From positions 1 to 46,735 of the forward strand of contig JAFUQP010000001.1 of NCBI GenBank assembly GCA_017472305.1: a DNA stretch of 46,735 nucleotides, given 5' to 3'. Every line of letters starts with the position of its first letter. The stretch's first letter is position 1. Source of the DNA: Clostridia bacterium. GTDB taxonomy: Bacteria > Bacillota > Clostridia > Oscillospirales > CAG-272. The position numbers were made by a program, and so were the translations under genes. Under the pieces are notes generated by a model. It saw only the letters and a program-made list of their open reading frames with translations, had not been told where the DNA came from and made no database searches. Positions 856 to 34,942 of the stretch are shown piece by piece.

Positions 856-955
856 AACAGAGTAGGAAGATACGCGTTTAGTGCCGTGTGGACGGGGAGT
901 TGTCATACGGACGAATGGGCTTTGCCCTGCGGTGTGTTTTCCGCATCCCACTGTT
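856..955 (+). promoter_or_regulatory. Tetrahydrofolate (THF) riboswitch aptamer
   Basis: The P1 strands AACAG (856-860) and CTGTT (951-955) pair perfectly. Between them are the conserved blocks of the THF (folT) riboswitch: GAGTAG, then CGCGTTTAGTG, GGACGGGGAGTTGTC, CGAA, and GCGGTGTG leading into CCGCATCCCACTGTT. These match the published aptamer in order and spacing. The gene downstream is the folate transporter folT, the expected target. The expression platform appears translational: see the hairpin at 987-1029. Confidence 0.92.
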
Positions 956-33047: not shown

Positions 33048-33818
33048 ATGGATAGTAGAGAAGAAAAAATCAAGGGCGATGTTGCCCTTAAGGTAAAGAG
33101 CCCCGCCCTTAAGTGGCTCGACAATTTCTGGTATCATTACAAATGGCACACCATTGTTATTCTATTCGTTATTATAGTCGGCGTTATGCTTATCCTACAG
33201 ATGTGCTCGAAGCCCGACTACGACCTTCACGTGTTATATGCCGGCGACGACAGAATAAGCTCCTCTCGAGAGGGCGGTGACCTCTCTGAATACGAGAAGA
33301 TGCTTTCGGACTTAAAGAGAATTTCTCCCGACGTGGACGAAAGTGGCGAGCGTGTTGTTGATTTTCTTAATCTGTTCGTTGCAAATGACGAGGAGCTTGC
33401 GGCACTTGAAGCAAAGGGCGAGAGTACCGAGGGCGCCGACTCGCTTATCAGAGAGGATGCCGAAACGCTCGAGTTCTCGATTGTTTCGGGTGATTATTAT
33501 CTTCTGTTTCTCTCCGAGCGGCTCTTCCTTGAATACGCGGAGGAGTTCGGCGACACAATGTTTGCTCCCCTGTCGGGATATGCTTCCTCTGACGAGGTAG
33601 AGTTTGTTGGCGAGGGCTCGCTTGGTATCAGGCTATCCACTATCGAGGGATTTGCCTCGCTTGGCGCGGTTTCCTCCCTGGACACTGCCGACACCGTCGT
33701 TTGCTTAAGGCGAGTTACAGAGGTTTCGGCATTCTGGAACAAGTCAAGAAACGAGAGCAACTTCAAGGCAGCAGAGGCGGCGCTGAAAAACATTCTTTCG
33801 TACGAAAACAACAACTGA
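33048..33818 (+). CDS. Hypothetical single-pass membrane protein
   Basis: 256 residues. The N-terminal ~35 residues are cytoplasmic and basic (KSPALKWLDNFWYHYKWH), then one transmembrane helix (~37-54, TIVILFVIIVGVMLILQM), then an acidic extracellular or periplasm-side domain of ~200 residues without Cys pairs or repeats. No motif is recognised. Similar short proteins with a WYHYKWH-like pre-membrane motif occur in gut Clostridia (recollection, not checked). GAAAGGC precedes the ATG. It lies 74 bases after the HD hydrolase gene. Confidence 0.8.
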   Translation: MDSREEKIKGDVALKVKSPALKWLDNFWYHYKWHTIVILFVIIVGVMLILQMCSKPDYDLHVLYAGDDRISSSREGGDLSEYEKMLSDLKRISPDVDESGERVVDFLNLFVANDEELAALEAKGESTEGADSLIREDAETLEFSIVSGDYYLLFLSERLFLEYAEEFGDTMFAPLSGYASSDEVEFVGEGSLGIRLSTIEGFASLGAVSSLDTADTVVCLRRVTEVSAFWNKSRNESNFKAAEAALKNILSYENNN

Positions 33819-33839: not shown

Positions 33840-34320
33840 AAAAGAGCTTCACCGCAATAGCGTGAGGTTCTTAGCGGAAAATTTGTAAAACACCGCCAAA
33901 AGCAAGTGTCGCATTTGCCCGGACAAATGCAAATGGGCTAAGCCCAAACCCGTATAACGACAGAAAGAGCAAGAATAGAAGGATTTTCTCCTCTTATTCT
34001 TGCTCTTGCTTTTATTTCTGTCGATATATTCACTTTCGTGAAATATGTTCACGCAAGATGAATTCGATATGTTCTCGCTTTGCTCGAACTCGATATATTG
34101 TCGCTTCGCGACAATTCGATATGAGATAAATCCCTCGAGCTTTTGACATATCTCGCCTTTGGCGAGGAATGCAAAAGCATATCGAGTGCGTCAGCACATA
34201 TCGAGTTTGTATATCTCGCCTTTGGCGCGGTATGCAAACCATATCGAAAATCCCGTGAGGGATTTATCTCGATGCGTGATACTCCGTTAAGAGTATCACG
34301 CTATAGGGTGAGGCTCTTTT
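33840..34320. repeat. Hairpin-array element with terminal inverted repeats (MITE-like)
   Basis: The 481-base non-coding block is bounded by AAAAGAGCTTCACC (33840-33853) and GGTGAGGCTCTTTT (34307-34320), which pair fully with one G-U; the similarity extends to ~24 bases (RC of 34297-34320 against 33840-33864). Inside are successive hairpins: GCATTTG/CAAATGC (33911-33930), GGGCT/AGCCC, a nested stem CGACAGAAA/TTTCTGTCG (33958-34023) around GAGCAAGAATA/TATTCTTGCTC, ATTGTCGC/GCGACAAT (34097-34115), CTTTTG...CTCGCC/GGCGAG...CAAAAG (34140-34177), GTGC/GCAC, GTTTG...CGCC/GGCG...CAAAC (34205-34239), AAATCCC/GGGATTT (34248-34265) and GTGATACTC/GAGTATCAC (34276-34299). TCGATAT or its complement ATATCGA punctuates the hairpins. 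Confidence 0.85.
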
Positions 34321-34342: not shown

Positions 34343-34942
34343 TTATTTGTTTGAGTCGATATGAGGAAGATACGCCTTAAGGTAATCGATGCCCGAGAAG
34401 AGGGTGGTGAACGCCATAATCGCCATCATTACGTAGGAGAGAATATGATTCTCGCAGAAGAAGGGGATTATAGGCTCTATGATAAGAACAACGGTTCCTG
34501 CCATCTGCGATACCGTCTTGATTTTGCCGAGCATAGATGCCGCAACAACGATTCCCGACTTACCCGCTACTACGAGGCGAAGGCTGGTTACTCCAAGCTC
34601 GCGAAGAAGGATTACGAGCACTACCCATACGAAAACAAGGGCGAGAGTTGTATTTCCAAGAAGGAGCATCCATACAAGTATTGCTATCATTGAGGAAAGA
34701 ACCATAAACTTGTCTGCAAGGGGGTCGATAAACTTGCCGAAGTCGGTAACGAGATTATACTTTCTTGCTATCTTGCCATCGAGCATATCGGTAAGTCCCG
34801 TGATAATATATATCACCGCGGGAACGATGCAGCCCCATATTGGTATATCCCTCATAAGAAGGAGCGAGGCTACGAACACAGGCACGAGAAGGCACCTGAT
34901 AAGTGAGAGTGTGTTTGGAACGTTAAGCGCTGTCTTTTTCAT
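34343..34942 (-). CDS. pgsA: CDP-diacylglycerol-glycerol-3-phosphate 3-phosphatidyltransferase
   Basis: 199-residue membrane enzyme that makes phosphatidylglycerophosphate, the first step to phosphatidylglycerol. The CDP-alcohol phosphatidyltransferase motif is complete: LTDMLDGKIARKYNLVTDFG followed by KFIDPLADKFM. N-terminal NVPNTLSLIRCLLVP is typical of PgsA. Four to six hydrophobic helices are visible. GGAAAGGAC precedes the ATG. It lies 114 bases downstream of rimO, and rimO-pgsA order is common in Clostridia. Confidence 0.93.
   Translation of the reverse strand: MKKTALNVPNTLSLIRCLLVPVFVASLLLMRDIPIWGCIVPAVIYIITGLTDMLDGKIARKYNLVTDFGKFIDPLADKFMVLSSMIAILVWMLLLGNTTLALVFVWVVLVILLRELGVTSLRLVVAGKSGIVVAASMLGKIKTVSQMAGTVVLIIEPIIPFFCENHILSYVMMAIMAFTTLFSGIDYLKAYLPHIDSNK

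What the first reader, a model, noticed from the sequence alone, without database searches (positions are those of the whole stretch)
33840..34320. Hairpin-array element with terminal inverted repeats, possibly a new MITE-like or RNA element
A 481-base non-coding block is bounded by matching inverted ends (AAAAGAGCTTCACC and GGTGAGGCTCTTTT; similarity extends to ~24 bases) and contains at least nine consecutive hairpins, each with a different stem but many with short TTT, TTC or GTGA loops, separated by a TCGATAT/ATATCGA spacer. There is no coding capacity. The stems are compensated over long stretches, which suggests selection for folding in RNA or single-stranded DNA. It looks like a mobile non-autonomous element, a REP/BIME-like array, or a structured RNA of a new kind.
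Basis: partly seen in the sequence, partly recalled or inferred. Interest (0 to 1): 0.72.

Follow-up and report, generated by a model that had tools for sequence, protein, structure and literature searches.

The report
Mobile hairpin array inside a terminator
This non-coding block is one copy of a scattered, tightly folded piece of DNA in uncultured gut Clostridia that appears to jump into the loops of gene-end "stop" hairpins, and its hairpin arrays are related to an RNA family called Gut-1.

Summary
In detail: ten predicted hairpins, fold z -12.9, no ORF of 90 aa or more, no Rfam match there at curated thresholds. It is a dispersed element whose 5' core occurs in 46 of 69 genomes of the genus.

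The element proper (33859-34302) sits in that terminator's loop between AT/AT repeats. In 79 of 91 full copies the same dinucleotide flanks both ends (32.5 expected). An A-tract before and a T-tract after occur together in 69 of 91 copies (exchanged-letter control 1 of 91). One related empty site was found.

Anatomy: imperfect 21-bp inverted repeats, a 107-nt core, a terminator-like hairpin, an array of variable hairpins separated by one repeated word, and an end palindrome. Stems covary by some measures. Two sibling arrays exceed the Gut-1 RNA threshold; Gut-1 matches occur in 64 of 391 class genomes.

Best reading: a non-autonomous MITE-like element with terminator-loop preference. Its enzyme was not found; Y1 and IS30 transposases do not track it convincingly.

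The parts
33048..33818 (+). flanking gene (256 aa), 3' end towards the terminator
   Evidence: ORF list; no Pfam family at E <= 0.001
33840..33853 (.). left half-stem of the host intrinsic terminator (A-tract and stem)
   Evidence: pairs with 34307-34320; after rejoining, 14-bp stem and 7-nt loop at -22.3 kcal/mol
33857..33858 (.). left copy of the 2-bp direct repeat (AT)
33859..33879 (+). left terminal inverted repeat
   Evidence: 16 of 21 identical to the complement of 34282-34302
33862..33968 (+). conserved 5' core
   Evidence: alignment of 51 copies, mean column identity 85%; sequence model R1
33959..34022 (+). internal terminator-like hairpin; its stem covaries between copies
   Evidence: note that the simple terminator scan did not flag it
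34021..34247 (+). word-hairpin array: TCGATAT four times, then ATATCGA three times, with variable hairpins between
   Evidence: word positions; variable hairpins in the alignment
34123..34136 (+). left arm of an inner 14-bp stem that encloses the second half of the array
   Evidence: 100% complementary to 34257-34270
34257..34270 (+). right arm of that stem
34274..34301 (+). end palindrome (28 bp)
   Evidence: read; the same kind of palindrome ends the other full copies by selection and occurs alone in L391, L395 and L399
34282..34302 (-). right terminal inverted repeat
34303..34304 (.). right copy of the 2-bp direct repeat (AT)
34307..34320 (.). right half-stem of the host terminator, running into the T-tract
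34343..34942 (-). flanking gene: CDP-alcohol phosphatidyltransferase (pgsA-like), convergent with the other one
   Evidence: PF01066, E 1.2e-37

Best explanation
The block is a 444-bp non-autonomous (MITE-like) mobile element, 33859-34302, inserted in the loop of an intrinsic terminator between two convergent genes. SHOWN in sequence: inverted repeats; a 2-bp direct repeat at the junctions; dispersed copies; flanks that look like split terminators; stems that covary by some measures; one word repeated as direct copies in the first half of the array and as inverted copies in the second, so that the halves can pair as a trunk with hairpins as side branches. INFERRED: a transposase acting in trans recognises the inverted repeats (the right one overlaps a 28-bp palindrome) and joins the element across a 2-bp stagger at an A/T-rich dinucleotide in a hairpin loop. 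INFERRED: insertion is nearly harmless because the element folds compactly enough for the host half-stems to pair again and because it brings its own terminator-like hairpin. The terminator-plus-array module is wider than this element; Rfam's Gut-1 RNA corresponds to a three-hairpin stretch of such arrays.
For: Copies: core in 46 of 69 genus genomes. Junctions: 79 of 91 copies share the flanking dinucleotide, 32.5 expected; best of 240 offset/length combinations scanned; AA 47, TA 13, AT 12, TT 4, AC 2, GA 1. Target: flank helix score >= 10 in 47 of 91 against 91 of 8190 mismatched flank pairs; A- and T-tract in 69 of 91 against 1 of 91 (letters exchanged) and 6 of 87 (200 nt away). Empty site: flanks of L018 joined match L008 and L007 across the junction, E 4e-18 and 4e-15. 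Stems: 53 two-sided changes against 20.4 +/- 3.0 shuffled, 0 of 500. Gut-1: L006 55.0 and L033 53.6 bits, threshold 50. Word: each of 91 copies has one dominant word out of eight.
Against: No autonomous partner or enzyme was found. The only sequence-level empty site comes from another genome. 23 of 91 copies score below 6 in the flank helix test and 12 of 91 lack the matching dinucleotide. Two of five covariation measures do not exceed the shuffles (10 pairs against 8.9; 29 pair types against 29.8), and the structure was predicted from the same alignment. In folds, flanks swapped between copies pair almost as often as the true ones (65 of 87 against 85 of 91). The simple terminator scan does not flag the internal hairpin. 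No transcription data.
Confidence: 0.72

Rival explanations
1. A functional structured RNA of the Gut-1 kind, kept for a cellular role as RNA; its dispersal is incidental.
For: Sibling arrays reach the Rfam threshold for Gut-1; stems covary by some measures; strong folding.
Against: Copies are inserted at unrelated sites with a 2-bp repeat; the hairpins of one array slot differ between copies; the word differs between copies with the same core; the core itself shows almost no covariation. Transcription was not testable.
Confidence: 0.12
2. A host terminator/insulator module spread by recombination or gene conversion between terminators, without a transposase.
For: Terminator-like hairpins lie directly beside Gut-1-type arrays outside the family as well: 14 of 29 loci against 1 of 44 control windows; the flanks of the window family are terminators; modules occur in other orders.
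Against: Sharp inverted-repeat ends and the direct repeat are what transposition leaves.
Confidence: 0.08
3. A REP/REPIN-like element moved by a Y1 (RAYT-type) transposase.
For: Palindromes between genes; solo end palindromes in three loci.
Against: Y1_Tnp has no match in G000, G040 (98% complete), G024, G027, G047 and G011, which carry 3-14 cores each; no association over 69 genomes (Fisher p 0.76). A 2-bp duplication is not expected of Y1 enzymes (recalled).
Confidence: 0.03
4. An element moved by an IS30-family transposase acting in trans.
For: IS30 enzymes duplicate 2 bp and favour palindromic targets (recalled). In the genus 17 of 19 genomes with an IS30 match over cut-off carry the core, against 29 of 50 without (Fisher p 0.02, not corrected for kinship or for the two tests made).
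Against: G027 (96% complete, 13 cores) has no IS30 match. In the family only the own genome among 9 with a close relative of its IS30 protein (my cut E < 1e-40) has a strong core hit (E < 1e-10), against 19 of the other 137 (tables, taken to be the same draw of 146). In 14 IS30 loci the element's end motif was absent except for one hit inside the ORF of L309; one search did not resolve the ends of these IS30 genes.
Confidence: 0.05

Closest known systems
Gut-1 RNA (Rfam RF01706)
   Same: A row of variable hairpins separated by one repeated word; the Gut-1 consensus is three hairpins separated by GUGAAAU, and it matches arrays of sibling elements L006 and L033 above its threshold.
   Different: The window copy uses another word (TCGATAT) and does not reach the Gut-1 threshold. 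Rfam describes neither the mobile element, the terminal repeats nor the adjoining terminator.
MITEs of bacteria in general
   Same: Short, no long ORF, terminal inverted repeats, direct repeats at the junctions, strong folding (features as given in PMC3049150 and PMC10969869, passages).
   Different: No parent insertion sequence found; target is the loop of intrinsic terminators; internal word-hairpin array with about eight alternative words on one core.
BOX, RUP and SPRITE repeats of pneumococcus
   Same: BOX is modular, with end modules around a variable number of internal modules; BOX and RUP have inverted repeats and direct repeats; SPRITE resembles a terminator; they insert into one another (PMC3049150, passages).
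   Different: Another host; here the element lies inside the terminator's loop. No sequence comparison was made.
REP/REPIN elements with RAYT transposases
   Same: Non-autonomous hairpin DNA with compensatory changes, between genes (PMC3116915, passages).
   Different: REPINs are tied to RAYT (Y1) genes; here Y1 genes do not track the element.

Membership tests
MITE (non-autonomous DNA transposon) | terminal inverted repeats | tested here: met
   16 of 21 identical in the window copy
MITE (non-autonomous DNA transposon) | target-site duplication | tested here: met
   2-bp direct repeat in 79 of 91 copies, 32.5 expected
MITE (non-autonomous DNA transposon) | short, without a transposase gene | tested here: met
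   91 copies of 267-506 bp between the recognised ends; no ORF of 90 aa or more in the window copy
MITE (non-autonomous DNA transposon) | cognate transposase or parent insertion sequence with the same ends | tested here: inconclusive
MITE (non-autonomous DNA transposon) | observed movement (filled and empty alleles in one species) | not testable with these tools
   one genome per species is held; one empty site from another genome only
Gut-1 RNA (RF01706) | match above the family's threshold | tested here: not met
   window copy: no match. Siblings L006 and L033: met
Gut-1 RNA (RF01706) | expressed as an RNA | not testable with these tools
   no expression data
REP/REPIN | associated RAYT (Y1) transposase gene | tested here: not met
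   no Y1_Tnp match in the own genome and other element-rich genomes; no association
IS30-mobilised element | presence of the enzyme wherever the element is common | tested here: not met
   absent from G027 with 13 cores; no overlap in the family except the own genome
Group I/II intron or IStron | intron ribozyme core | tested here: not met
   no such Rfam match in the window or in ten sibling loci at E <= 2
BOX element | boxA/boxB/boxC sequence | not tested
   layout compared from passages only

The most novel reading that the evidence does not exclude
A class of mobile elements in Clostridia is specialised on terminators. It recognises the hairpin itself, inserts in its loop, folds so that the host half-stems can close again, and supplies a spare terminator. 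Its word-hairpin array forms a ladder of branched helices whose word is rewritten in all copies of an array at once. Gut-1 RNA would then be a fragment of this module and not an independent small RNA.
Probability: 0.35. Interest if true: 0.8.

Novelty: new variant of a known kind. Interest (0 to 1): 0.62.

Why it matters
It gives a genomic context to an RNA family, Gut-1, for which my searches found no paper. It describes a target choice, the loop of intrinsic terminators, that I did not find in print in the searches, and that would explain how a bulky insert is tolerated between genes. It poses two testable questions: which enzyme reads a terminator hairpin as its target, and how all words of one array come to change together. 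It also warns that assemblies of these genomes can break inside such elements.

Tried and rejected
Mobilising enzyme: Y1 and IS30 were considered; neither is convincing.

Vehicles: two exact patterns in viral contigs gave 0 stretches each; blastn of the window element against phages and plasmids gave no match.

Core structure: RNAalifold on 51 cores gave 6 pairs with almost no covariation, so the core was modelled by sequence alone; I claim no structure for it.

Folding as proof that the outer stem re-forms: dropped, because swapped flanks pair nearly as often.

A gene-pair comparison that I noted (element in L089 against L081, L083 and L102) is not used: on re-reading the two flanking genes are not shown to be adjacent in those relatives. 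The statement in my note about the ends of the IS30 genes was read by eye; one search did not resolve them.

Literature: 'Gut-1 RNA' 0 papers; GOLLD+HEARO+Gut-1 0; two term sets on hairpin or terminator targets 0; IS30 with palindromic targets 0; the searches listed 4, 4 and 2 papers. Of these I read passages of PMC3049150, PMC10969869 and PMC3116915. The library lacks most subscription papers, so this is weak evidence of absence. That Gut-1 was described from gut metagenomes in 2009 is recalled.

Full report
WHAT IS THERE. The 481 bases fold at -210.6 kcal/mol, z -12.9, none of 100 shuffles as good, with ten hairpin loops. The word TCGATAT occurs four times and its complement three times. No ORF of 90 aa or more lies in it. 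Rfam at curated thresholds finds only a THF riboswitch and a tRNA elsewhere in the window.

IT IS A DISPERSED ELEMENT. In the own genome 16 stretches match, some of them only the internal hairpin; matches lie at contig ends of C38 and C17 (both ends) and near the end of C1. With the whole element as query 46 of 60 genus genomes match. With a sequence model of the 5' core 46 of 69 genus genomes match, 48 of 146 in the family (32 of 71 genera, many matches weak and partial), and 12 of 391 in the class, of which only two outside the family are strong (G170 86.6 bits, G389 67.1 bits). These counts include the own genome.

IT SITS IN TERMINATOR LOOPS. Of 189 core hits in 226 loci I kept 91 full copies with distinct flanks and a recognised right end; the rest were cut by contig ends, repeated, or lacked a right end that my pattern recognises. 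The sequences just outside differ between copies, yet the left and right side are complementary: helix score >= 10 in 47 of 91 against 91 of 8190 mismatched pairs, >= 6 in 68 of 91 against 721 of 8190. An A-tract on the left and a T-tract on the right occur together in 69 of 91, against 1 of 91 with the letters exchanged and 6 of 87 at 200 nt distance. The longest flanking ORFs are convergent in 45, tandem in 33 and divergent in 8 of 86. In the window, leaving out the element and one AT gives a terminator with a 14-bp stem, a 7-nt loop and a T-tail, -22.3 kcal/mol, between a 256-aa gene without a Pfam match and a CDP-alcohol phosphatidyltransferase gene.

JUNCTIONS. I compared left and right flanks over 240 combinations of offset and length. 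The best is a dinucleotide: the one that ends three bases before the core equals the one that follows the first base after CACGC in 79 of 91 copies, with 32.5 expected from mismatched pairs. They are AA 47, TA 13, AT 12, TT 4, AC 2 and GA 1. The window copy has AT on both sides. The joined flanks of L018 match L008 and L007 across the junction (E 4e-18 and 4e-15); the other 24 listed alignments are hits on the elements' own loci or weaker matches, several of them between terminator-like sequences. In L018 the element has thus entered the internal hairpin of a second element type. The empty loops differ between copies, so this pair proves the site but not the number of duplicated bases. Behind the pgsA-like gene, 20 of 29 relatives show an uninterrupted terminator-like hairpin by script, at least three of them doubtful; L089 has a full element, L086 an array and L096 a short array-like piece.

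ANATOMY. The core is followed by a terminator-like hairpin, the array and the end palindrome. The simple terminator scan did not flag that hairpin; it flagged three sites on the minus strand within the core. Each of the 91 copies has one dominant word: AGTGAAGTT 27, GTTATGA 16, TCGATAT 13, TGAATTG 12, AGTGATATT 9, GATGAAATC 6, AGTGATGTT 4, GCGATAT 4; in none is a second word more than half as frequent. L143, which is not among the 91, mixes two words. I tested covariation on 17 copies of the commonest word type (chosen by at least five words, under 375 bp, distinct): 97.6% of 1197 cells pair, 53 cells are changed on both sides against 20.4 +/- 3.0 in shuffles (0 of 500), and 4-8 when the partners are slid; the covariation score is 0.144 against 0.066 (0 of 500). 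The number of pairs with two-sided change (10 against 8.9) and of further pair types (29 against 29.8) do not exceed the shuffles, related sequences can inflate the cell counts, and the structure was predicted on the same alignment. In that prediction words of the first half pair with inverted words of the second half, and hairpins branch off. The core shows almost no covariation.

LINK TO GUT-1. In ten sibling loci searched at E <= 2, Gut-1 (RF01706) matched L006 (55.0 bits) and L033 (53.6) above its threshold of 50, and L114, L132 and L030 below it. Its consensus is three hairpins separated by GUGAAAU. In the class 64 of 391 genomes match at E <= 0.001 (46 of 223 genera) and 39 exceed the threshold; of the 14 control genomes E. 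coli matched below it. In 29 of 30 such loci with findable words (two of them placed by a single word only), 14 arrays lie beside a strict A-stem-T hairpin against 1 of 44 control windows. I printed 12 of the 30; several read CCAGAAAAA-stem-TTTTTCAAC, and in L272, L273, L276 and L285 a tRNA gene ends where that hairpin begins. So the terminator-plus-array module is wider than the element in the window.

SOLO ENDS AND SISTERS. Among 20 loci read around unpaired element ends, L391, L395 and L399 hold only an end palindrome inside a terminator-like stem. L370, L371 and L372 show array, hairpin and a core-like part in another order.

WHAT MOVES IT is unknown. Y1 transposase: 18 of 69 genomes at E <= 0.001, 15 over cut-off, no association with the core (p 0.76). 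IS30: 21 of 69, 19 over cut-off, weakly associated in the genus (p 0.02, uncorrected), absent from G027 with its 13 cores, and not associated in the family. No match in phages or plasmids, and none for two exact patterns in viral contigs.

VERDICT. A MITE-like, non-autonomous element with a terminator-loop target and a Gut-1-type array. Mobility is inferred from copies, junctions and one related empty site. The enzyme, transcription and the harmless-insertion model are not shown. The traits ascribed to Y1 and IS30 enzymes (size of duplication, target) are recalled except where PMC3116915 is cited (passages).

Noticed in passing
L007 and L008 (own genome, C40 and C31): A second element type with the word GCGATAT and another left core, also inside terminator-like half-stems; one of its kind serves as empty site for L018.
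   Followed up: partly
L005, L019, L026, L037, L143: Another repeated hairpin (GAACCCCCAAAGCTC...GGGGAACCCC) sits inside some arrays or cores, twice in tandem in L037 and L143.
   Followed up: no
L306 (G000:C30:10802-11665) and L303-L313: IS30-family transposase genes, mostly one per genome, without clear terminal repeats in a simple search.
   Followed up: partly
L009 and L014 (own genome): Stand-alone hairpins nearly identical to the internal hairpin of the window element lie between genes.
   Followed up: no
L143: Chimeric array: AGTGAAGTT words in the first half, AACATCAC-type words in the second.
   Followed up: no
L272, L273, L276, L285: tRNA genes that end directly at the terminator of a Gut-1-type array.
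   Followed up: partly
L347/L387 (G170) and L348/L386 (G389): Strong core matches in two genomes of other families of the class: horizontal transfer or misplaced contigs.
   Followed up: no
window 856-955: THF riboswitch, 90.5 bits.
   Followed up: no
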